64,000 nt of DNA from a virus. The translations under genes and the position numbers were made by a program. The notes below the pieces were generated by a model that worked only from the letters and a program-made list of their open reading frames with translations, was not told where the DNA came from and ran no database searches. Shown piece after piece: positions 9,359-47,668 of this stretch. Position 1 is the first letter of the stretch. Every line of letters starts with the position of its first letter. The DNA is taken from positions 1-64,000 of the IMG/VR virus record IMGVR_UViG_3300025930_000008, one strand, 5' to 3'.

Positions 9359-11695
9359 CTAGGTGAAGCGGCCCTTTGGATTTTCAAACGGCGTGCGGCT
9401 GCCGGGGAGCGGAGTCAGCTTCTCAGGCTCTATGAAACATCGTACGTGATAACTTGACATAGGACCGCCCTTGAGAGGATACATAACCTCCACCCAACCC
9501 GTTGTCTGATCCTGAGATACTACCTCAACCATAGCATTCTTTGGTATTTCCATCCACTGACCTGCGTCATATGCGCCTTCACGGCCCTCTGACTGTCCTA
9601 GCGTAGCTTCCTCCATACGTGCGGCTGAGCCAGGAGGGAATTCATCACCGGCTTTAGCTACATGGTAGGATAAAGTTTCCCTAGAAGGATCAGTGCCCCA
9701 CATACCTTTGGTTGTCTCGTCAATATGATATCCGTTGGCATTTGCGAATTGCTCTAGGTATGGTTGGTATTTAGGATGCAGAGGGCTATTAGCATGGCCT
9801 AGGGTTTCTAAAAGCTGTCCCGATTCTGGCTTAAGATAAAAGGCGGACAGAGGAAATCCATTATGATTTCTCAACGACAAGAGTTGCATAGGCTCGCCAT
9901 TATGGGACGGGCTAATAGGCTCCTGGCTGTACTGATGAAATTGATTCTTATCCGTTTTCCAGAGTTGATTCAGCCGTGGTCCATCCTTTTGTAGACAATT
10001 ACGCATCATCATTCCCTCTCGGAAGGTATCTCCCCGGGTGGGAACGGTCTTGATATGAAATCCATCATCCCATTGATGTAGAATTTCACCGCGATCTGGA
10101 AAGGGCTTAGCATACTGCTCTACCATCGCCCGCTGTTGGGTTTGACTCAACCCTGCAACATATACTCTAGAGAATGTTCCAGGCTGCTGTAGTGGGTTAG
10201 CAGGGTATGGCCCAGGACGAGCGCCAGGGACAGACACAGGCTGCGGCGGTGGTAAAGTTTGTTCCTGTAGAGGATATGGCGGAATGATATTGCTGTCTGC
10301 CGGTGGAGCAAATTGATTCATAGGAATCAGGCCCATCGACGGGTTAGGCCCGTGGATAGCAGGGGGCGTCATATTCAACGGGATCCGGAAGTTAGGAATA
10401 TGTGGAGCGCCTGTAGGTATAGGGTACCCCGGAATCTCTGGCGCGCCCGTAGGTGGTGCATCGAACCCAGGGATAGGATTCAACGCAGGAGTAAGCTGTG
10501 GTCCATAAGGGGATGGAGCCATAGGCATACCTCCGGGTCCACCAGGGCCAGTGTATACCATACCCTCTGAGCCAGGAGCCTGTTCCCAATTCTGGGATGG
10601 CATATTAACAGGACCCTGTTGACCGAATGGTAGCGCAGGCTGTTGCCAACCCTGAGGTGTAGCTATACCCCCGCCCGGAGGCATACCCGCAGGCGGTGAC
10701 CCAGGTGGTAGGCCGGTAGGCTGATCGTCAACCGGGGTTGCTAATGACTTCCAATAAGCTGCGAGTACGTGCGCACATGGCCGTCCCTCATACTTTTTCC
10801 ACTGTCGTGTACGCTGAAATGCATACTGATCCCAGGGGCATTCACACGTCCATTGTGTGATTGCGCGGGAATTTGGATCGTCACGGGAAATCTCACATTG
10901 ATACTCTCCGTGATCGCCGATAACGTGAGCAACGACGTTGTTGTAACCATTTCTTAGTAGGGTAACATTCCCTGATTGAATGAGGCGCTTGGCCTTCGCC
11001 ATAATGTCAGGCCATGCGGCAGTCTTACGAACCTTAGAAGTCCAGTCCGTTTCATCGTCGCCAAAATCATGAGCCTTGGCAAAATACTCTTCCTGATTTT
11101 CTATGTACTGAGGCGTGACCCCTAGATGGTCGCCAAGAGAATCCTCTACCTCTCTCATATTGGGAGGATAAGCGTGACCTACAAGACGTGGATAATACCA
11201 GTGCAGAGTACCATCCTCCATAATACGTCCGGGGTGATGCGGCTCCGCATATGGAGAGCCATAGGCTATACCCTCAAACCCCGTTGTGGTACGCATCGCA
11301 TCAGTATGGAACTGCCCATGATGCCCCAGAAGAATTTGATTCCTCTGCGGAAAGTAGAGAAATGGATAATCATTGGAGTGTTTCTCGTCACCCCAATATT
11401 CGGTATCGAAATCAGGACGAATGATCGGGATACGAGTCTTATACTCGTCTGGATCAAATAGCTGCTGTTGGTCAAAGGAAAACTGTGCGTGTTTTATTCC
11501 ACACGCAGCCAATTCCTCACGACGGATCGTGTAGGCGAGCCAGCGGTCGTCAACAGTGCCACCAGTAGATAAGATGACCGCAGTTCCGGGTTCTGATTCC
11601 CACCAAGTAACACGCGATGGACCAATCTTGGCCTCGCGCTTAGGTAAACTTACTGGCGGGCCTGAGCCTACGCCGTCTTTTATGTCCCACGCCAT
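9359..11695 (-). CDS. Large protein with SWIM zinc finger and PcfJ-like region, 778 aa
   Basis: Near residue 280 a SWIM-type finger is visible (CECPWDQYAF, then a later CAH). Residues 310-500 are Pro/Gly/Met-rich low complexity. The C-terminal third has a PcfJ-like stretch (MMMRNCLQ, then LSLRNHNGFPLSAFY). SWIM fingers bind nucleic acid or protein; PcfJ-like domains are common in phages and plasmids without a proven role. The N-terminus (IKDGVGSGPP and His/Trp-rich runs) resembles the neighbouring giant protein. It could be a virion or ejected protein; that is inference. Confidence 0.65.
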   Translation of the reverse strand: MAWDIKDGVGSGPPVSLPKREAKIGPSRVTWWESEPGTAVILSTGGTVDDRWLAYTIRREELAACGIKHAQFSFDQQQLFDPDEYKTRIPIIRPDFDTEYWGDEKHSNDYPFLYFPQRNQILLGHHGQFHTDAMRTTTGFEGIAYGSPYAEPHHPGRIMEDGTLHWYYPRLVGHAYPPNMREVEDSLGDHLGVTPQYIENQEEYFAKAHDFGDDETDWTSKVRKTAAWPDIMAKAKRLIQSGNVTLLRNGYNNVVAHVIGDHGEYQCEISRDDPNSRAITQWTCECPWDQYAFQRTRQWKKYEGRPCAHVLAAYWKSLATPVDDQPTGLPPGSPPAGMPPGGGIATPQGWQQPALPFGQQGPVNMPSQNWEQAPGSEGMVYTGPGGPGGMPMAPSPYGPQLTPALNPIPGFDAPPTGAPEIPGYPIPTGAPHIPNFRIPLNMTPPAIHGPNPSMGLIPMNQFAPPADSNIIPPYPLQEQTLPPPQPVSVPGARPGPYPANPLQQPGTFSRVYVAGLSQTQQRAMVEQYAKPFPDRGEILHQWDDGFHIKTVPTRGDTFREGMMMRNCLQKDGPRLNQLWKTDKNQFHQYSQEPISPSHNGEPMQLLSLRNHNGFPLSAFYLKPESGQLLETLGHANSPLHPKYQPYLEQFANANGYHIDETTKGMWGTDPSRETLSYHVAKAGDEFPPGSAARMEEATLGQSEGREGAYDAGQWMEIPKNAMVEVVSQDQTTGWVEVMYPLKGGPMSSYHVRCFIEPEKLTPLPGSRTPFENPKGRFT

Positions 11696-11984
11696 TGCGA
11701 TACTTTGGTTTCCCTGCTTTGATCCTACGTATTATAGGCGCGACTACGGCCATTTGATGAGGCAGTAGATCACCCTTGACTCTGTTGCATAATGGGTGAG
11801 CAGGCTGGCAATTCCAATAAGCGTGAGCGCCACCCTTAGATGTGGGTACGATGTGATCGACTGTCCATGACTTTTGATTAACCGGCTCTCCACAAATACC
11901 ACATCGTCCCGCGTATCGTCTTAGCAATTCGTCGCGCCGTACATGCTCAACGAACTTGCCTCGAACCTTCGCCTTTCGGGACAA
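11640..11984 (-). CDS. HNH endonuclease
   Basis: 114 residues. The zinc knuckle CGICGEP and later HPLCNRVKG flank the motif WTVDHIVPTSKGG and YWNCQP, a classic HNH nuclease. The start is a TTG at 11984 with GAAGGA upstream. Phage HNH proteins of this size are either free-standing homing nucleases or packaging helpers. It is not next to the terminase, so I favour a homing type. Confidence 0.8.
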   Translation of the reverse strand: MSRKAKVRGKFVEHVRRDELLRRYAGRCGICGEPVNQKSWTVDHIVPTSKGGAHAYWNCQPAHPLCNRVKGDLLPHQMAVVAPIIRRIKAGKPKYRNGVGHKRRRRLRPASKFT

Positions 11985-12122
11985 TTAATTCCTTCGTGTT
12001 TCTCTAGTAGGGTACAGTTGGAGTATAATCTCCAACATCTGTCTCCTAACAGTCGCGTTAGGAGTGGTACGGATATCCTCTATGACTCGCTTGACGAGTT
12101 GACGCTGTAGAGGGTTTTCCAT
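11985..12122 (-). CDS. Small helical protein, 45 aa
   Basis: ATG at 12122, TAA at 11985, immediately followed by the TTG of the HNH gene. The sequence (MENPLQRQLVKRVIEDIR) is amphipathic and basic. Two inverted repeats lie inside the coding sequence (TCCTAAC/GTTAGGA and TTGGAG/CTCCAA); they may be regulatory or chance. The frame is just downstream of the ncRNA terminator. Confidence 0.55.
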   Translation of the reverse strand: MENPLQRQLVKRVIEDIRTTPNATVRRQMLEIILQLYPTRETRRN

Positions 12123-12147
12123 TCACCCATTACCACACGGAGGCAAT

Positions 12148-12180
12148 AAAAAAGGCGGGTAGCTAGCCGCTATCCCGCCT
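12148..12180 (-). terminator. Rho-independent terminator of the ncRNA
   Basis: GGCGGGATAGC, loop GGCTA, GCTACCCGCC, then TTTTTT on the minus strand. Confidence 0.9.
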
Positions 12181-12410
12181 CACAACGCTTGGCATCATCG
12201 TATAAAAATGATAACCCATCGGTTGAGGGTTCCCGCCCTCAAGCTAGACCGAGTGGTACCTAGTATTCCCAAACAATATGGCCCGTGCCTCACTAGGAAA
12301 GACGCGGTTGTATCTGAGATAGGGCAGTCAGATACATGCAAGCCTACTTGACCTGAGGCATACCGCACTCTGGCGGACGTAACCCCAGGGAGTCTCCCTA
12401 TCGCTTTAGT
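12148..12410 (-). ncRNA. Unassigned structured ncRNA, about 263 nt, own promoter and terminator
   Basis: A good promoter (12417-12445) and a strong terminator (12148-12180) bracket about 263 bases with no credible reading frame. The RNA has clear pairing. An 8-bp hairpin, GTATCTGA/TCAGATAC, has a loop CCCTATC that complements an upstream GATAGGG, suggesting a pseudoknot. CCTAGT/ACTAGG closes another domain. Near the 3' end there is a CGGGAA-loop hairpin (stem TTGAGGG/CCCTCAA) like those in the tRNA array. I cannot match it to 6S, SRP or any family I know. See findings. Confidence 0.7.
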
Positions 12411-12416
12411 CCAAAC

Positions 12417-12445
12417 AGCTTAGCCGATCCTACGACGGCTGTCAA
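12417..12445 (-). promoter_or_regulatory. Promoter of the 12.1-12.4 kb ncRNA
   Basis: TTGACA (12440-12445), 17 bp, TAAGCT (12417-12422), with a start expected near 12410. The sequence from the -10 onward (GGCTAAGCTGTT) is nearly identical to the tRNA promoter at 45996-46024 (GGCTAAACTGTT). Confidence 0.8.
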
Positions 12446-12448
12446 GGC

Positions 12449-13612
12449 TCAGTCGTCCTCATCCCACAAGTCTGCCCATTCGGAATCGGGCATTGCGGTC
12501 ATAGGATCGAAGGGATTATACTTGCCGCCATGGATCGGTGTCAAGCCCTGCGACTGTAGAAATTCATGGTACTGTGACGGGTCCTTGACCTTCCAGTTCT
12601 CAATTACGCTGGCTCGACCATCGGGTGCGATGTAAATATTCGCCACAGAGTTATTATTTACATGCCTTAGCTCAGGACCATTCAGACCAATATGATGCGG
12701 CCAACCATGCTCGTCCGTCTGCCAGTGGTGTAAGGCAAAGTCTGACGGCACTGATCCCTCAGGCGTAGTAGGCTGACCATTAGGCTTCATGTAAATAATG
12801 CCCTTACCAAACTTCCCTGGCCTCCAAGGATTTTGATACACTTCCGGCTCAGGACTAAATATGTTTCTATCGTGAGGATCCATGCCAGCCCTGCGAGCAA
12901 TATATTCGCCAGATACCTCAGCGATACGAGGGAATAACTCACGGTTAGCCAGGAACTTATAGACGATGTTGGCCTGGGAGAAATCTCCCTTACCCGCCTT
13001 CTGGTCCCTCATCCTACGCTGATGAATCTGATGCCAGAACTTAACGGCCTTATCCGGCTCGTAGCGTAATAGCCTCTCCATCTTATCGGCTGACTCTAGG
13101 GCATACACATAATCTGTATTATATTCACGCTCTACGTCATGGACACGGCTCTTGTCCGGTGGCTGAATCCAATTCTGTTGGATAATATCATAGCCTGAGC
13201 GCAAGCCAGGTTGATATAGGTCAGCCATTCCAATGTTCTTTGCTACAACGAAACCCTGCATCTGGTAGGGTGTACCCGGCAGAGTAGTACCATCTACATG
13301 CTCAATCATCAGAGCGATCAACCTAGCCCTATCCCACTCCGGTAGGAAATGCGGGTCCACGAATAGAGACACATCACAGTCTGACGCTGCGCTGTACTGA
13401 TACGTCGTGAGCGAACCGGTGAGGACTAGCTGTAACCATTGCTCAGGGTGAGGATGGAAGGTCTTGGCATGGCGATGGATTTCAGAGATTATCCAACGTC
13501 GATGTACTGGCTTGAGGGTAGGGGTAGGAGAGCCAGGATCATCCCACACATCAGGCGGTAGAGTATCGTGGATCGGGTCAAGAATATTTGACTTACGACC
13601 AGTCATCCTCAT
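12449..13612 (-). CDS. Nucleotidyltransferase-like protein, 387 aa
   Basis: Near residues 65-90 the sequence LTGSLTTYQYSAASDCDVSL matches the polymerase-beta-type nucleotidyltransferase core (GS motif, then D-x-D). A helical region follows (residues 150-230). The C-terminal 120 residues (HHWQTDEHGWPHHIGLNG) look like a separate beta domain. The substrate is unknown: such proteins can modify RNA, drugs or proteins. It overlaps the giant CCA-module gene upstream by 20 bases, and both are nucleotidyltransferases, which suggests a shared RNA-related task. Confidence 0.65.
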   Translation of the reverse strand: MRMTGRKSNILDPIHDTLPPDVWDDPGSPTPTLKPVHRRWIISEIHRHAKTFHPHPEQWLQLVLTGSLTTYQYSAASDCDVSLFVDPHFLPEWDRARLIALMIEHVDGTTLPGTPYQMQGFVVAKNIGMADLYQPGLRSGYDIIQQNWIQPPDKSRVHDVEREYNTDYVYALESADKMERLLRYEPDKAVKFWHQIHQRRMRDQKAGKGDFSQANIVYKFLANRELFPRIAEVSGEYIARRAGMDPHDRNIFSPEPEVYQNPWRPGKFGKGIIYMKPNGQPTTPEGSVPSDFALHHWQTDEHGWPHHIGLNGPELRHVNNNSVANIYIAPDGRASVIENWKVKDPSQYHEFLQSQGLTPIHGGKYNPFDPMTAMPDSEWADLWDEDD

Positions 13613-16600
13613 CTTCCTCTATAGGCTCATGCTCAGCATTGGGATCACCGTGAATGTTTGGGTCAAGCGCATGTAACCCATCAACGTTAGGGAAGGGTAT
13701 AGAACGACGGTCATAAGTGCCATACAGACCTGCATAGCCATCCGGATGAATATGGAATCGACGGTCATACGCGCTATCCCAATCATCCTGAATGCCCATA
13801 TTTTTCTCATAAGAATCATGGATAGGTTCGCCATCCTGATAATTGTCATAAAGATTCCATGTATGGTAATTACCATTCTGATCCATCGTACCTTTGCCCC
13901 AAGTACCAGGCTTCCAATTCAGGCGATGGCCCGGAGCATGAGTCACAGGAAAATCGCTGCTAGGCTGCGACTGCGACCAATTAGTATACGATGATAAATC
14001 CTCGGGGAAGTCTCTGAAATATGCTTCAACTTCCTCTGACGGCCATTGCTGAATCTCTTGCCACTCGTCTGAACGGCCAGCCGTCCTAGCTCGGATCAAC
14101 CCAAGCAATGCTTCTTTAGTGTTCAACTGCGGATTGTCCAATACCTGCTCATGTAGGAATTGGAGCGTCTTACCAATCTCAGGCCCCTGGGGAATACCCG
14201 CAGCCAATAGGTCACTACCATTCACCGCTAGCTGTGAAAGCGCCGTAGGGACGTTTCCTGCCCGCACAGAGTTGATTAGCGTGCGATGCTGGTCCACCGA
14301 AAGCGATGGATCAGTCGGATACTCAGACTTTCCGTCTTGGTCAGCCTGTCGCAAAATAAGCAGCCTATCCGCTAGGTCCCCCGTCTTATTTAGGAACCGG
14401 CGAGCGCCCTTTTCAGTATTGAAACCGGGGAACATATGGTGCATGATGAGGGCTGAGATAGGACTGATACGAGCATTAGGGTACCTTAGCTCCCCTAGCC
14501 TCGCTGCCGCCATATCCGCACCGATTGTTTCGTGAGTGCCACCGATACCGGGTGCCTTTTGGTAGAAGTGTCCCGAAACATTATTGCTGCCGCAATTCTC
14601 ACATACCTCAGCTTCACCGGGATGGGCGTGGTAGCAGTCCCTACACTCTGACCACCGGCTCGCAGGTTTTCCGATATCGTGCAGGAGTGCCGCCAACTTG
14701 AGGTCGGGGTCGTGTGGTGCGAGTTTTTGGGCATGTTCTAATACACTCAGTAGGTGCTGATCGAGTAGCTGCTCATGATGAGGATTCTTCTGGTCATAGT
14801 CTCGCGTTGCCTCTACCTCAGGGAAGATATATTTCATGAGGCCAGTATCCATCGCTAGCCTCATTGCGCGAGCCGTATCTACATCTTTGTGATTCCCGTC
14901 ATCCTCGTAGCCAAACATCTTATCTAGCTCTGTGCGAATACGGTCATTCGGTAGATTTTGCAGAGCGTGAGCATTATCCATCATCTGATCCTCTGTTTCA
15001 GAATTCGGGATCAAGCCATGCTTGGCTACAGCGGTAAGGGCACGCATAGTCCGTAGAGGGTCATCAGAAAGAGACTTGGTATGAAGGCTTCGTAGAGTTC
15101 TTCTTTTAATATCTGACAAACCCCCAAAGGGATCAAGAAGCTGACCTGTAGACAGGTCAACAGCCATAGCATTAGCGGTAAAGTCACGACGGTATAAATC
15201 TTCCTCGGGCGTCATTGTGTGGTCAGCGTCAATAGCAAAGTCCTTATGCCCACCGCCACCGGTAGCCCGCTCTCTACGCGGGATAGCAATTTCTACTTCC
15301 TTACCCTTGCCACGACCACCTTCGTGATAGCGGAACACACCGAAATCCTTACCGGTGAGGTCTACGCCACCCTTATTCTGCTTGCCCAATGCGGCTAGGA
15401 TACGATTTACTTCATCGGGATGAATACCCGTCACCATCAGGTCTAAATCGTTAGGCTCTTTGCCTAGTAGGGCATCACGCACAGCGCCACCCACGACATA
15501 CACATCGCCACCGGCAGCCTCTAAAGCCTTCCATGCGCGGAAAACGATAGGGTCAGCCGCAGCTAACGCCTGCACGTAGCCACCAATATCCTGACCGGCT
15601 AGCTTAGTCTGCTTGCCAGAATCGTCGGTTAGGTCTACTGACTTAATCTCCATGTGCGGATGATTGTAATACCACAACTCAAGCATGTGACGCACGGTAT
15701 AGGGCATATTGGTCATTGACCGGATATGCACCTTGCCACCAGGCTCATAAGTACCTTCTACTATGCCACCAGGGGTGAATTGGCCGGGGATATCAGACTG
15801 CTTCGTTCCCGGCTTCCCAATAGTTATTTCATCCTCTTGAATGTCATAAATGAACGGAATAGGAGCCGCGATCTGATCCTTACCTTCATCTGCCTTACCG
15901 GTAATAAACTCCCAGCCAGACATGCCACGACCCTCAGAATCCTCGGTTGCGTCATCCTCAGCATAAGGCTCATGCGGGATCAGTACCTTACGGATATTCT
16001 CCAAATGCTGTGGGCCGGTGCGCATACGTAGGCCACGCACACCTGGGTCCTCAACATACTCATCCTCTGGCGGGTCTACCCCTACCCATCCCTCATGGCT
16101 GTCCCTAAATGGAGGCCACCCCATATCCTCATAAAGATCATGGTGATAGTCACCCGGAGGGCCTAAAACAACGTGATTGAGCTTATAGTTGTAGACTACT
16201 GGCCTACGCCAACCAAACTCGCTCATATCAGCTTGGCCCGGGGCGTGCTTTACTGTGATCTGAGGTAATTCAGCAGATTCGTGGAACGATGGCATTTCAT
16301 GGAAATGAGGCGGGAAAGTCGCATCCATATCCAACCAGGCTGTATCCTTAGTGGGGTCATCATGGTTATCCCCCATAGGTTCCTCATTGGTCCTATGACG
16401 CAGGTATAGATTCCACGTAGGGAATAGGCGCTCACAGTCTGGACACTTGAACACGCCTCCGGGCTGACGCTCGTCCTTAGGCTCTTCAAACATATTATGC
16501 TCATCGGGGTTATTGAAAGTGCCAGCGCCAATGCTGTCAATCTCCATATCCTCGATAGTTTTCAGACCTGAGTCATTTCCTGCAATTATGGTCAATCCGT

Positions 16601-17189
16601 TGTCTGAGGCCCATTCGGCTAATGCCTCTATAGGCACTGTCCCGTAAAGGAAGGCTTCCTTGCCCCGTATATGAGCAGCGCCGCTAGAATTTTTTAAGGC
16701 ACTTTTTCTCCTGGCTAGGTTAGCGACCCCATCCTCATATGCGATGTAGTAGCTTTTTACAGGAGCAAACTCAGAACCCGTGTCAACCGGCTCACCTTGT
16801 AGGTCGGTCATGCCTCCCCACTGCCACCCGGCTGTTTCAGTGTAATCCTTGAGGATACGGGCTAATCCGTGGGCAGCTACATTTCCGGTAATGCGCCAAG
16901 AAGCCTTACCCAAATCGACGTGAACAGTACCCATAGCTGTAGGCCCAACATGATCTGCACGTACACCGGCATGGCTTGCTAGCTCGTCTAGTTCGTGATC
17001 CTCAGAAATGTGAAATTGACCGTTGCCATAGAACCATGTATAGTCCTCGACACCAGCCTTTTCCAACCAGTCAGGCCCACCACCCGGAGGCGTGGACTTA
17101 CCATCTATTGTCTCTGGTAGCTCACCGGGGTATGGCTCAGTCGCCCAGCCACCGGCCCCGCCACCATCTGCTGCTGTCCAGAGAGTCAT
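13593..17189 (-). CDS. Giant protein with embedded tRNA CCA-adding module (NTase plus HD), 1198 aa
   Basis: Residues about 555-690 read as class II CCA-adding/poly(A) polymerase: VYVVGGAVRDALLG, then NDLDLMV with the catalytic DxD, then RRDFTANAMAVD and DPLRTMRAL. Residues about 810-910 add an HD domain (AALLHDIGKP, and later LIMHHMFPG), as in CCA enzymes with phosphatase activity. The N-terminal 550 residues are unrelated and include a C2H2-like finger (CPDCERLF, HRTNE, near 250) and Trp/His-rich segments. Such a fusion is odd: bacterial CCA enzymes are 400-500 residues. All 37 tRNA genes in this window lack CCA, which fits a phage-supplied enzyme. I am confident of the domain, less so of the activity. 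Confidence 0.75.
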   Translation of the reverse strand: MTLWTAADGGGAGGWATEPYPGELPETIDGKSTPPGGGPDWLEKAGVEDYTWFYGNGQFHISEDHELDELASHAGVRADHVGPTAMGTVHVDLGKASWRITGNVAAHGLARILKDYTETAGWQWGGMTDLQGEPVDTGSEFAPVKSYYIAYEDGVANLARRKSALKNSSGAAHIRGKEAFLYGTVPIEALAEWASDNGLTIIAGNDSGLKTIEDMEIDSIGAGTFNNPDEHNMFEEPKDERQPGGVFKCPDCERLFPTWNLYLRHRTNEEPMGDNHDDPTKDTAWLDMDATFPPHFHEMPSFHESAELPQITVKHAPGQADMSEFGWRRPVVYNYKLNHVVLGPPGDYHHDLYEDMGWPPFRDSHEGWVGVDPPEDEYVEDPGVRGLRMRTGPQHLENIRKVLIPHEPYAEDDATEDSEGRGMSGWEFITGKADEGKDQIAAPIPFIYDIQEDEITIGKPGTKQSDIPGQFTPGGIVEGTYEPGGKVHIRSMTNMPYTVRHMLELWYYNHPHMEIKSVDLTDDSGKQTKLAGQDIGGYVQALAAADPIVFRAWKALEAAGGDVYVVGGAVRDALLGKEPNDLDLMVTGIHPDEVNRILAALGKQNKGGVDLTGKDFGVFRYHEGGRGKGKEVEIAIPRRERATGGGGHKDFAIDADHTMTPEEDLYRRDFTANAMAVDLSTGQLLDPFGGLSDIKRRTLRSLHTKSLSDDPLRTMRALTAVAKHGLIPNSETEDQMMDNAHALQNLPNDRIRTELDKMFGYEDDGNHKDVDTARAMRLAMDTGLMKYIFPEVEATRDYDQKNPHHEQLLDQHLLSVLEHAQKLAPHDPDLKLAALLHDIGKPASRWSECRDCYHAHPGEAEVCENCGSNNVSGHFYQKAPGIGGTHETIGADMAAARLGELRYPNARISPISALIMHHMFPGFNTEKGARRFLNKTGDLADRLLILRQADQDGKSEYPTDPSLSVDQHRTLINSVRAGNVPTALSQLAVNGSDLLAAGIPQGPEIGKTLQFLHEQVLDNPQLNTKEALLGLIRARTAGRSDEWQEIQQWPSEEVEAYFRDFPEDLSSYTNWSQSQPSSDFPVTHAPGHRLNWKPGTWGKGTMDQNGNYHTWNLYDNYQDGEPIHDSYEKNMGIQDDWDSAYDRRFHIHPDGYAGLYGTYDRRSIPFPNVDGLHALDPNIHGDPNAEHEPIEEDEDDWS

Positions 17190-21067: not shown

Positions 21068-23255
21068 CTACCAATCTGTATTTCTTCTGTTGTGAGGCGC
21101 TTCTAGGAAGCCTTGACACGATCTTTTCCGGCGGTTGAGAAACCTTATCAGCCGGTCCGGTGGGATCATCCTGCAAGGCAACGTTCTCTAGCTCCGTATG
21201 CGAGGCGCGCGCCGCCAAATTTTCAGACCCATTTTGAGTGGACGCTGGCCGTGGCATACCTTGCCTACGTTCCATTGAGACAGGCGGTGCTGTCATACCT
21301 CCACCTGGCCCCATCGCACCTTGAGGCGTGGCCGCAGGTGCCCCGCCCATACTCATATCATTACCGATACCGCCTGGTCCCATCATCCCTGCCGGTGGCG
21401 TTGGCATGACGATACTCTCACCTGGGCCACCCGGTCCTGCTGGTGGGCCTCCTGCGCCTGGGTCCTGCCCTGCCATACCTGTTGCTGCCGGTGGCAATAC
21501 TCCCGGCGTACCGGGCTGTTGCAGAACGGACTCAACCTCAGCCTTGAGGTCTGGTGGGATGGGTAGGTTACGCTCGCGCAGAATGGTGTAAGTTTTCATC
21601 TTGGCCTCCTGCTGACGGACAGTTTTCTTTACAAGTTCCTCGTTGGTGTCCTCAATCTCATCCTCAACATCAAAGTTGACACCAACCATAAGCCTACGGT
21701 CTGAGATAGGTACACCCATGGCACGTAGAGCCTGCATGAACTGACGTTCCGTAGCCTCGTCCCTTAGGTCAAGAGTCTGGAAAGATAGCTCAGGTATAAG
21801 CAGCTTGGGGCGCGTTTCAATCCGTTTGTTTCCGTCTGGATCATAGATAACGACTTCCTCGTACAGTGGCACCTTGGTAGAGCCTCGCATCTCGTAGTCG
21901 TAATGTTCCTGGGCCTCAGCCACGACAAGAGCGCGGCTCTCGAAATGTGCCTTAAGATAATCTTGGAAGGTGCGGAGGATTTGGTTAAGGAACTCTGCTT
22001 GGAGTGCGGAGCTAGCATAAGGCTGCGTAGTTGCCCCTGCTGATAACAGGCTTGGATTGACTCCGAAAATCTGCATGATACGACGTTCAATTCTGTCGAA
22101 GTCGTCCCCAAGTCGGGGCATTTGCTCTCGTCCGAATACATTTTCAATGTCTAGTCCAAAGTGGTGTACCATGAGGCGGAAGTCAGAGGACAATGCGATA
22201 TCAATATCGTCACGCACCATTTCCATCTGATCTGGTGTCGGTACCCACGGTGGCTCGCCGTCACCTAGGTCTTGGATACCTAGCTTGGCAAGAATGAACG
22301 GAGAGTAAAGACGTTCAGCGATAGCATCCTGTGATGCCATCAACTTTTCCTCATGCATAAGGGTACGCAATCCTCGCAGGAGGATAGGCGTACCGTGGTC
22401 ATCCCAATCTGTAATCTTGTTGGCGATCTGCTTTAGAAGCACGCCAGAGATAGGGATATGTTCATTGCGTCGGAGGTAAGGAATCAACTCAGGGAAATTA
22501 AGTTCCAGCATCCTGTACTCTTTCGCAGGAGACTTTTCTTGAGCCAACTTCTTTAGATACTCTGGCGGTACCATGAGCATCTGCTTTTCACCCAAGAGAG
22601 GGAAGTTCTTGATAACTATTTCCTCAGGGTTTAGAAGTTCCTCGCGCTCCCATACTCCTAAGTCCTCGTCAAAGGAACCAAGAGAAAAGGCTTCCCCGAC
22701 TGTCCAGAACTCTCGTCCAAGGGATACAAGGAAGTTAGGGTAGTCCAGCTTGTCAAAGAACAGAGACTCATAAAAGTCTGCAAGCTTCTGGTCCTTTGAG
22801 TACAACTCCATTCCAACAAGAGGGAAACGAGTGAAAATGTCAATGAGAATAGGGACAAGGTAATGTGTTGCATAGAAAAGACGGAGCCACTTGTGTAGTT
22901 TACGCCTGTGGTTTTCGTCTGCCATGTTCCACGGCAAACCAGACAGGTCCCAATACTCCATCGGGTCATAGAACCGAGGGATGGCAGCCCATGTATCAGA
23001 GCCACCCGCACTACTCAACCGACTCGTCCTCATGCGACGAGCCAGTGCGTTATTATCATCAAGTTGTTTGAGTGTCGCAGCGTTGGGCGAGTCTAAGTTA
23101 ACAGCGCCAGTTAATGTCGCTCTTAGATCACCGGGAGTACGCGCCATGCGATGCATTTCATTTGCGTACTCCTGCTTGCGCAAAGGGTGACGTGGTAGCG
23201 TCACCCCTCGTTTTGCCAGGTTCTCAACCTGACGGTCTAGCTTGCTAGTATCCAC
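20961..23255 (-). CDS. Portal protein, 764 aa
   Basis: The portal ring is the DNA entry channel of the capsid. Residues 60-480 have the portal layout: helical clip and stem, NPSLLSAGATTQPYASSAL, and a conserved RIERRIMQIFGVN segment. The C-terminal 200 residues are Pro/Gly/Met-rich and variable. It lies downstream of the terminase, as expected. The start is GTG at 23255, seven bases after a TATAGT, so it may be leaderless. Confidence 0.85.
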   Translation of the reverse strand: MDTSKLDRQVENLAKRGVTLPRHPLRKQEYANEMHRMARTPGDLRATLTGAVNLDSPNAATLKQLDDNNALARRMRTSRLSSAGGSDTWAAIPRFYDPMEYWDLSGLPWNMADENHRRKLHKWLRLFYATHYLVPILIDIFTRFPLVGMELYSKDQKLADFYESLFFDKLDYPNFLVSLGREFWTVGEAFSLGSFDEDLGVWEREELLNPEEIVIKNFPLLGEKQMLMVPPEYLKKLAQEKSPAKEYRMLELNFPELIPYLRRNEHIPISGVLLKQIANKITDWDDHGTPILLRGLRTLMHEEKLMASQDAIAERLYSPFILAKLGIQDLGDGEPPWVPTPDQMEMVRDDIDIALSSDFRLMVHHFGLDIENVFGREQMPRLGDDFDRIERRIMQIFGVNPSLLSAGATTQPYASSALQAEFLNQILRTFQDYLKAHFESRALVVAEAQEHYDYEMRGSTKVPLYEEVVIYDPDGNKRIETRPKLLIPELSFQTLDLRDEATERQFMQALRAMGVPISDRRLMVGVNFDVEDEIEDTNEELVKKTVRQQEAKMKTYTILRERNLPIPPDLKAEVESVLQQPGTPGVLPPAATGMAGQDPGAGGPPAGPGGPGESIVMPTPPAGMMGPGGIGNDMSMGGAPAATPQGAMGPGGGMTAPPVSMERRQGMPRPASTQNGSENLAARASHTELENVALQDDPTGPADKVSQPPEKIVSRLPRSASQQKKYRLVDDELPDTQGSSGESGSDPSGSEKPGGQGDSQDKED

Positions 23256-42529: not shown

Positions 42530-42860
42530 GCACAGCCGGGGTGTCCGTCCCTACGTAGGTTCATTCCAGGCCACGACTACCTAGCTGAAACCTATACCTC
42601 GGAGGCGTTCGCAGCCCCAAGCGGGTGAAGAACCACTTCAACCTTTAAGTTTAGAAACCTCCTGTTCGATGACAAATGATAGACATTTCAACCGACCTGA
42701 GCGTGTCCGTGGATACTGTGTTCGCACGCAGCGGTCAAGCACTCGGCCCCATATCCTTTTCGGCTGGCTACTCCGTCGCCCTTGCACAGTCATAGGTTTC
42801 TAAGGGTTCCCGCCCTCCACCTAATCTTCCCGCACAGTATGTGTCAGTCTATAAGCCTCA
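42530..42860 (-). ncRNA. Large structured RNA region, about 330 nt
   Basis: No credible reading frame. Long-range pairing is striking: GAAACCTAT (42792-42800) with ATAGGTTTC (42587-42595), and ATACTGTG (42833-42840) with CACAGTAT (42713-42720). It also holds a CGGGAA-loop hairpin (near 42803). A promoter-like pair lies inside (42710-42738). It may be one large RNA or a long leader. Confidence 0.5.
42710..42738 (-). promoter_or_regulatory. Promoter-like pair inside the 42.5-42.9 kb RNA region
   Basis: TTGACC (42733-42738), 17 bp, TATCCA (42710-42715). Confidence 0.4.
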
Positions 42861-45757: not shown

Positions 45758-45765
45758 AGCCCCGG

Positions 45766-45800
45766 CATAGGGTTCCCGCCCTATGTTACTCCGGGGTCGT
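45766..45800 (-). other. CGGGAA-loop hairpin with outer stem
   Basis: Outer stem CCCCGG/CCGGGG, a five-base bulge on one side, inner stem CATAGGG/CCCTATG, loop CGGGAA. It lies just before the UUA tRNA. Same layout as the element in the 12.2 kb ncRNA. Confidence 0.6.
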
Positions 45801-45824
45801 CCACGGACAATTAGTCGATGGACA

Positions 45825-45934: not shown

Positions 45935-45995
45935 ACCCAAAACAACGCCTGATTCTGACGATGCGTGAGCGGGATGGTTGACCAACCAGAACAAC

Positions 45996-46024
45996 AGTTT
46001 AGCCGATGTTCTGGCGACTGTCAA
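45996..46024 (-). promoter_or_regulatory. Promoter for tRNA-Val, UUA tRNA and tmRNA unit
   Basis: TTGACA (46019-46024), 17 bp, TAAACT (45996-46001). The closest relative in this window is the ncRNA promoter at 12417-12445. Confidence 0.8.
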
Positions 46025-46321: not shown

Positions 46322-46364
46322 ACACTACCCGACAGGTTCCCGCCTGTCAAGGCGAGGGAACCTG
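46322..46364 (-). promoter_or_regulatory. Promoter for tRNA-Val (TAC) with -35 in the loop of a palindrome
   Basis: TTGACA (46345-46350), 17 bp, TAGTGT (46322-46327). The -35 is the six-base loop of an inverted repeat (CAGGTTCCC... with ...GGGAACCTG, 46333-46364, one bulged base). It also starts a CGGGAA-loop hairpin (46331-46348). This looks like an operator or an RNA switch. Confidence 0.6.
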
Positions 46365-47534: not shown

Positions 47535-47668
47535 TAGTACCGATAACGTTCAAGGAAGGGCTGTTATCGGTGTTATCGTGCGACTGCCATTGGACCATAT
47601 TCATAGTCGAGAGCCTTGCGCCGCTGCATGATACCCCGGATTCCCGTCCGGCATATTCATGCCTGATA

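What the first reader, a model, noticed from the sequence alone, without database searches (positions are those of the whole stretch)
12148..12410. Orphan ncRNA with its own promoter, terminator and pseudoknot
About 263 nt from a textbook promoter to a textbook terminator, no ORF, and complementary loop and upstream segment (CCCTATC with GATAGGG) suggesting a pseudoknot. It shares a hairpin type with the tRNA array and a promoter type with the tRNA/tmRNA unit, so may belong to the same regulon. It does not fit a family I know.
Basis: partly seen in the sequence, partly recalled or inferred. Interest (0 to 1): 0.8.

Follow-up and report, generated by a model that had tools for sequence, protein, structure and literature searches.

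The report
Orphan phage RNA gene with pseudoknot
A phage, probably of soil actinobacteria, very likely carries a stand-alone, non-protein-coding RNA gene that no database recognises and that shares its promoter and one hairpin with the RNAs of the phage's large tRNA cluster; it looks real, but its job is unproven.

Summary
On the minus strand, 12410→12148 is a non-coding gene candidate. It has a TTGACA-N17-TAAGCT promoter, a strong terminator hairpin with T6, and a 9-bp hairpin whose loop CCCUAUC is complementary to an upstream GAUAGGG (18 of 20,000 shuffles match this; one other place in 107 kb). The only perfect consensus promoter of the genome lies 100 nt upstream.

Both links to the tRNA array hold. 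The 32-nt promoter context recurs once, upstream of the tRNA-Val/tmRNA unit. The CGGGAA-loop hairpin recurs in array RNAs of this phage and of one relative (6 of 15 CGGGAA copies sit on stems of ≥5 bp; background 1%); the wider loop consensus is C-N-GGA-A.

No homologue was found (Rfam, IMG/VR, phages, plasmids, GTDB patterns, about 65 relatives). In some 20 relatives the flanking genes are syntenic but this RNA is absent, so it is probably an insertion next to an HNH gene. The pseudoknot therefore has no covariation support, and no expression data exist.

Best reading: an acquired stand-alone ncRNA of the tRNA-array group, acting through a protein that binds the GGA-hexaloop hairpin. The gene is likely (about 0.8); the mechanism is inferred. 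Notable side finding: phage-encoded RNase P RNA-like sequences in both arrays.

The parts
12148..12410 (-). candidate stand-alone ncRNA (5' end about 12410 from promoter P2, 3' end in the T run)
   Evidence: promoter and terminator positions; no coding signal; sequence
12515..12544 (-). promoter P1, perfect TTGACA-N18-TATAAT, inside the 3' end of the upstream CDS; would give an RNA of about 360 nt
   Evidence: only exact match in the window, 0 expected in shuffles
12414..12445 (-). promoter P2, TTGACAGCCGTCGTAGGATCGGCTAAGCTGTT, context shared with 46024-45993
   Evidence: 2 matches, 0.01 expected; best of 136 promoter pairs, 14/23 non-hexamer identities against mean 6.2
12396..12402 (-). 5' pseudoknot strand GATAGGG
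12309..12336 (-). 9-bp hairpin UGUAUCUGA/UCAGAUACA with 10-nt loop carrying CCCTATC (12324-12318), the 3' pseudoknot strand
   Evidence: pair probability near 1 for most of the stem
12352..12389 (-). helix CCUGGGG/CCUCAGG with inner hairpin CCGC/GCGG, between the two pseudoknot strands
   Evidence: pair probabilities 0.96-1.0 with the pseudoknot strands held single
12216..12256 (-). composite helix CCA(c)UCGG-[UCUAGC bulge]-UUGAGGG CGGGAA CCCUCAA-CCGAUGG, with the CGGGAA hexaloop hairpin at 12242-12223
   Evidence: model R1 second hit at 45886-45762, 18.3 bits, E 2.8e-4
12148..12180 (-). intrinsic terminator, stem AGGCGGG-a-UAGC / GCUA-CCCGCCU plus T run
   Evidence: -20.9 kcal/mol
12449..13612 (-). 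upstream CDS, 387 aa, nucleotidyltransferase-like (GSLTTYQ..SDCDVS motif), conserved in syntenic relatives
   Evidence: fold match to nucleotidyltransferases only weak
13593..17189 (-). CDS with CCA-adding enzyme / poly(A) polymerase head and HD domain
   Evidence: Pfam PF01743, PF12627, PF01966
11985..12122 (-). possible 45-codon ORF downstream of the terminator; no family; coding score near zero
11640..11984 (-). free-standing HNH endonuclease gene with foreign codon usage (score -10.3)
   Evidence: PF01844 E 1.1e-12
45993..46024 (-). second copy of the P2 promoter context, upstream of tRNA-Val(gac) / tmRNA
45762..45814 (-). array copy of the composite helix: CCCCGG-AGUAA-CAUAGGG CGGGAA CCCUAUG-CCGGGG
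42800..42824 (-). array CGGGAA hairpin (non-coding stretch between tRNA-Cys and tRNA-Ser)
46328..46351 (-). array CGGGAA hairpin CTTGACAGG/CCTGTCGGG, between tRNA-Thr and tRNA-Val; same inter-tRNA site in relative G004
47636..47651 (-). array CGGGAA hairpin CCGGA/TCCGG

Best explanation
It is a stand-alone non-coding RNA gene of the phage: transcribed on the minus strand from one or two SigA-type promoters, ended by its own terminator, and compacted by an intramolecular pseudoknot (GAUAGGG with the CCCUAUC hairpin loop). It entered this lineage together with, or next to, an HNH gene, as an insertion between two genes that are neighbours in relatives. By promoter context and by its 3' CGGGAA hexaloop hairpin it belongs with the structured RNAs of the phage's tRNA array. 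The most likely way it works is as a stable RNA made during infection whose hexaloop hairpin is bound by the same RNA-binding protein (phage or host) that binds the array's C-N-GGA-A hairpins, so that it holds, delivers or titrates that protein. Shown by sequence: anatomy, non-coding character, improbable complementarity, shared promoter and hairpin, absence from syntenic relatives. Inferred: transcription, pseudoknot formation, the protein, and the effect.
For: Anatomy. Non-coding. Pseudoknot: 18/20,000 shuffles, one other site in the genome, 0.9 kcal/mol cost against -9.4 gain. Shared promoter. Shared hairpin: CGGGAA is the commonest hexaloop hairpin in the arrays of G000 and G004 (6 of 332); 6 of 15 CGGGAA copies on the sense strand have stems of 5 bp or more against 1% background, and 0 of 10 antisense. 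The loop generalises to C-N-GGA-A: 11/332 sense, 0/257 antisense, 5/2020 elsewhere. Insertion: about 20 relatives keep the flanking genes, none has a comparable stretch between them, and most have no non-coding gap there.
Against: No transcript data. No homologue, so no covariation. Apart from terminator and pseudoknot the fold is not unusually stable (z -0.58). Only one clean GGA hexaloop is in this RNA, and no binding protein is identified. The shared promoter has only two copies. The hairpin set was found after looking at this RNA, although the array statistics do not depend on it.
Confidence: 0.42

Rival explanations
1. It is a cis-acting leader: transcription from P1/P2 reads towards the 45-codon ORF and the HNH gene, and the structured RNA decides between termination at 12148 and read-through (attenuator or riboswitch).
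For: The terminator lies 26 nt before an ATG on the same strand. The segment UGCCUCA could pair with the UGAGGC at the start of the terminator stem (read from sequence). Upstream RNA and terminator have a best duplex of -24.5 kcal/mol. A similar promoter-RNA-terminator unit precedes the tRNA array at 48298-48088 and at the same place in G004.
Against: The terminator is very stable (-20.9) and no dominant antiterminator is predicted. The 45-codon ORF has no clear ribosome site and no coding signal. No riboswitch family matches. The HNH gene has its own ribosome-binding sequence.
Confidence: 0.17
2. It is not a functional RNA gene: an inserted non-coding remnant, or the 3' untranslated end of the upstream operon with an ordinary terminator; pseudoknot and hairpin are chance.
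For: No conservation in any relative. The body of the RNA is no more stable than shuffles. P2 has a weak -10. The neighbouring HNH gene has foreign composition.
Against: Pseudoknot complementarity at about 1 in 1000, the only perfect promoter of the genome 100 nt upstream, a promoter context shared with the tRNA unit and the array hairpin would all have to coincide.
Confidence: 0.2
3. It is a sponge for a CsrA/RsmA-type regulator: C-N-GGA-A hexaloops in this RNA and the array RNAs present the GGA-in-hexaloop element and titrate the host protein.
For: GGA at hexaloop positions 3-5 is the top middle triplet in both arrays on the sense strand (9/126 and 10/146, against 2/88 and 2/143 antisense; Fisher P 0.0036). 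The one bacterial genome found to carry a related phage gene (Solirubrobacter) has CsrA genes over the Pfam cut-off.
Against: Loop position 1 is C, not the A of known CsrA sites (from memory). This RNA has four GGA, no more than expected (P 0.84), and only one in a clean hexaloop. A related 152.6-kb phage record (G060), high in G+C, shows no GGA hexaloops in its array, nor do nine other tRNA-rich relatives beyond chance levels. The phage has no CsrA; its true host is unknown.
Confidence: 0.08
4. It is an RNA that acts through intermolecular kissing of GAUAGGG and the CCCUAUC loop, forming dimers or larger rings, in the manner of GOLLD/ROOL cages or phi29 pRNA.
For: A 7-nt loop segment with a perfect complement outside its own stem allows pairing in cis or in trans. 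GOLLD and ROOL assemble by kissing loops and lie near tRNA islands (PMC12286853).
Against: Cis pairing over about 70 nt is entropically favoured. No sequence similarity to GOLLD or ROOL at Rfam E<=5. It is 2-3 times shorter.
Confidence: 0.05

Closest known systems
GOLLD RNA (phage / mycobacterial tRNA arrays)
   Same: phage RNA linked to tRNA arrays and HNH genes, function unknown (PMC6582537, PMC12286853)
   Different: GOLLD is over 400-800 nt and has an Rfam model; this is 263 nt with no match at E<=5 and lies 22 kb from the array
ROOL RNA
   Same: structured phage RNA near tRNA islands with pseudoknots and loop-loop contacts
   Different: no Rfam match; shorter; not inside the array
T4 stable RNAs C and D (species 1 and 2) of the tRNA cluster
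   Same: small stable non-tRNA RNAs of unknown function made with phage tRNAs (from memory, not tested)
   Different: T4 RNAs are processed from the tRNA transcript (from memory); this one has its own promoter and terminator
CsrB/RsmZ-type sponge RNAs
   Same: GGA in a hexaloop hairpin
   Different: one clean GGA hexaloop here against many; loop begins with C; GGA not over-represented

Membership tests
any Rfam family (4227 models) | covariance-model match | tested here: not met
   no match at E<=5 in 12100-12620, both strands
GOLLD / ROOL | match to the family model | tested here: not met
   (whole Rfam library; nothing reported)
GOLLD / ROOL | homo-oligomeric cage by kissing loops | not testable with these tools
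   needs native gel or cryo-EM
tRNA / tmRNA / RNase P RNA | ARAGORN or Rfam recognition | tested here: not met
   nothing in 12148-12410; the 7-bp GAUAGGG/CCCUAUC lacks the T-arm a tRNA would have
stand-alone phage ncRNA gene | own promoter and intrinsic terminator, no coding signal | tested here: met
stand-alone phage ncRNA gene | discrete transcript | not testable with these tools
   no RNA data at hand
structured ncRNA | covariation in homologues | tested here: inconclusive
   no homologue of the whole RNA found in IMG/VR, phages, plasmids or about 65 relatives
tRNA-array RNA group of this phage | CGGGAA (C-N-GGA-A) hexaloop hairpin | tested here: met
   12242-12223, stem 7 bp; array statistics
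tRNA-array RNA group of this phage | array promoter context | tested here: met
   32-nt context shared with 46024-45993
CsrB/RsmZ sponge | several A-N-GGA-N hexaloops | tested here: not met
   one GGA hexaloop, first base C; GGA count P 0.84
cis leader / attenuator | mutually exclusive antiterminator and terminator | tested here: inconclusive
   a possible partial competitor only

The most novel reading that the evidence does not exclude
This phage lineage runs an RNA-only regulon: the orphan RNA, several non-coding RNAs of the tRNA array, the RNA next to tmRNA and a phage-encoded RNase P RNA all carry the same C-N-GGA-A hexaloop hairpin as a common tag for one RNA-binding protein that gathers, protects or processes the phage's own translation-support RNAs during infection.
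Probability: 0.17. Interest if true: 0.8.

Novelty: new variant of a known kind. Interest (0 to 1): 0.5.

Why it matters
Phages with large tRNA arrays often carry non-coding RNAs whose roles are unknown (GOLLD, ROOL). A small, separately transcribed RNA that shares a promoter and a hairpin tag with the array would give a simple handle on what those RNAs do, and the C-N-GGA-A hairpin makes the question testable by one pull-down experiment.

Tried and rejected
Homologue searches: blastn against phages and plasmids; exact 18-20-nt patterns in viral contigs and genome contigs; a single-sequence covariance model over the own genome, G004 and about 65 relatives. All empty apart from the array hairpin. 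Searches by the neighbouring proteins alone found no near-identical contig covering the locus. Equivalent non-coding gap between the flanking genes in about 20 syntenic relatives: rejected. Degenerate tRNA (7-bp GAUAGGG/CCCUAUC as acceptor stem): rejected, no T-arm, no ARAGORN or Rfam signal. Rfam families, group I intron included: rejected. Phage CsrA: absent. GGA sponge by count: not supported; GGA hexaloops in ten other tRNA-rich relatives: not enriched, so a feature of G000/G004 only. Fold stability as evidence: rejected, z -0.58 without the terminator. A Rfam accession recalled for GOLLD proved to be another family, so that search says nothing about GOLLD; the whole-library scan does. The nucleotidyltransferase-like neighbour was folded; structural matches were weak.

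Full report
What the window is. It is part of a 107,022-bp IMG/VR virus record. Its terminase and portal are distant relatives (about 33% and 42% identity) of those of mycobacteriophage I3/Bxz1-type, Gordonia and Rhodococcus phages. It carries 35 tRNA genes and one tmRNA over the Rfam cut-offs in one array at 34.7-48.1 kb. A bacterial assembly that carries a related phage gene is a Solirubrobacter, so a soil actinobacterial host is plausible but not shown.

The observation. Read on the minus strand, the stretch is TTGACA-N17-TAAGCT (12445-12417), then about 260 nt without coding signal, then a strong terminator (12180-12148). The -10 of that promoter is weak, but 100 nt further upstream, within the end of the preceding gene and in the same orientation, lies the only perfect TTGACA-N18-TATAAT of the window; none occurs in 100 shuffles and none elsewhere in the genome. 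The hairpin UGUAUCUGA-CUGCCCUAUC-UCAGAUACA has a loop whose CCCUAUC is fully complementary to GAUAGGG at the RNA's 5' end. Comparable arrangements arise in 18 of 20,000 shuffles and at one other place in 107 kb. Holding both strands open costs 0.9 kcal/mol and the duplex is worth -9.4. With those strands held open, the helix CCUGGGG/CCUCAGG plus CCGC/GCGG between them is predicted with probability near 1, so the 5' half forms a compact pseudoknotted domain on paper. The RNA body is otherwise of ordinary stability (z -0.58).

Links to the tRNA array. The P2 promoter context TTGACAG.CG.C.....ATCGGCTAARCTGTT occurs twice in the window: here and at 46024-45993, upstream of tRNA-Val and tmRNA (0.01 expected). 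Among 136 pairs of N17 promoter-like sites in the genome this pair is the most alike, 14 of 23 non-hexamer positions against a mean of 6.2 and a next best of 11. The hairpin UUGAGGG-CGGGAA-CCCUCAA has counterparts in the array with different stems and the same loop. CGGGAA is the commonest hexaloop of the arrays of this phage and of relative G004, and of 15 CGGGAA on the sense strand 6 sit on stems of at least 5 bp, against 1.03% background and 0 of 10 antisense. One of them lies at the same inter-tRNA site in both phages (tRNA-Thr / tRNA-Val). Allowing the second base to vary, C-N-GGA-A is 11 of 332 hexaloops in sense, 0 of 257 antisense and 5 of 2020 elsewhere, including this RNA. A covariance model of this RNA alone finds one further convincing match in the genome, the array element at 45886-45762, through the composite helix (18.3 bits, E 2.8e-4). 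In ten more distant phages with tRNA arrays the enrichment is absent, so it marks the G000/G004 group.

Origin. Relatives keep the order CCA-adding enzyme - nucleotidyltransferase-like gene - SWIM-domain gene. Between the last two they carry various coding cargo, and in none of some twenty did I find a comparable stretch; most have no non-coding gap there at all. In the window the same interval holds this RNA, a doubtful 45-codon ORF and an HNH gene of foreign codon usage. The RNA is thus most simply an acquired, self-contained unit. The free-standing phage homing endonuclease SegB lies beside and amplifies neighbouring tRNA genes (PMC13096335), and GOLLD is found with HNH genes in tRNA arrays (PMC6582537), so the company is not surprising.

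Homology. No Rfam family matches at E<=5. No similar DNA was found in phages or plasmids (12, 109), no exact 18-20-mers in IMG/VR or GTDB (75, 107, 108), and no model match in about 65 relatives (74, 79). The nearest relative, G004, is a fragment that ends before this locus, so absence there is not known. Covariation for the pseudoknot is therefore untested.

Mechanism. The gene-level claim (a stand-alone ncRNA) I put at about 0.8. For the mechanism I commit to a stable RNA that shares, through its hexaloop hairpin, a binding protein with the array RNAs; this is inference. A host CsrA-type protein is one candidate, because GGA at hexaloop positions 3-5 is its signature (from memory) and the Solirubrobacter genome has CsrA. 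But the first loop base is atypical, the RNA is not rich in GGA, and the other tRNA-rich relatives lack such loops. A cis-acting leader for the HNH operon is the other serious rival; a similar promoter-RNA-terminator unit precedes the tRNA array in both phages, so terminated leaders may be a habit of this phage.

Verdict. A real and well-observed feature, most likely a new orphan phage ncRNA, a new variant of the tRNA-array-associated phage RNAs. Its function is open but directly testable.

Noticed in passing
window 37358-37091 (-): RNase P RNA-like sequence (GAGGAAGGUCGGGAC ... ACAGAAUCCCGCC) between tRNA-Gly and tRNA-Gln; Rfam archaeal RNase P model 32.9 bits, E 2.1e-6, below gathering. Relative G004 has one at the same array position (L155 292-787, class A model, 25.4 bits, E 7.9e-6), with a perfect GAGGAAAGUCCGG. 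A phage-encoded RNase P RNA conserved in two phages would be of high interest; both carry a CUGGAA hairpin.
   Followed up: partly
window 48298-48088 (-): promoter-like TTGACT-N16-TATCGT, about 200 nt of RNA and a terminator (GGCGACC/GGTCGCC T6) directly before the first tRNA; same arrangement in G004 22254-22533: terminated leader or further ncRNA.
   Followed up: partly
window 45814-45350 (-): non-coding stretch with a tRNA-like element (ARAGORN anticodon UUA, i.e. ochre-reading; only weak Rfam support) and about 340 nt of further RNA before tmRNA; recalls GOLLD's habit of embedding a tRNA, but no Rfam match.
   Followed up: no
window 42886-42460 (-): about 430 nt apparently without ORF between tRNA-Cys and tRNA-Ser, carries the CGGGAA hairpin; another orphan ncRNA candidate.
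   Followed up: no
window 45349-44899 (-): tmRNA of 451 nt with predicted tag GQSNWLTRLHSNGISIAW; longer than the 374-position Rfam model.
   Followed up: no
window 7211-7183, 8339-8311, 9226-9198 (-): promoters whose predicted start points fall on or next to the ATG: probable leaderless genes, as in actinobacteria.
   Followed up: no
L005 10001-12832: terminase of relative G004 carries an in-frame insert of about 240 aa that looks like an intein (CNPPEAP...NGYASKNCNSS); absent in the window's terminase.
   Followed up: no
window 12449-13612 (-): nucleotidyltransferase-like protein (GSLTTYQ..SDCDVS) beside a CCA-adding enzyme, conserved in more than 20 phages; no Pfam match, weak fold similarity to ANT/MNT enzymes.
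   Followed up: partly
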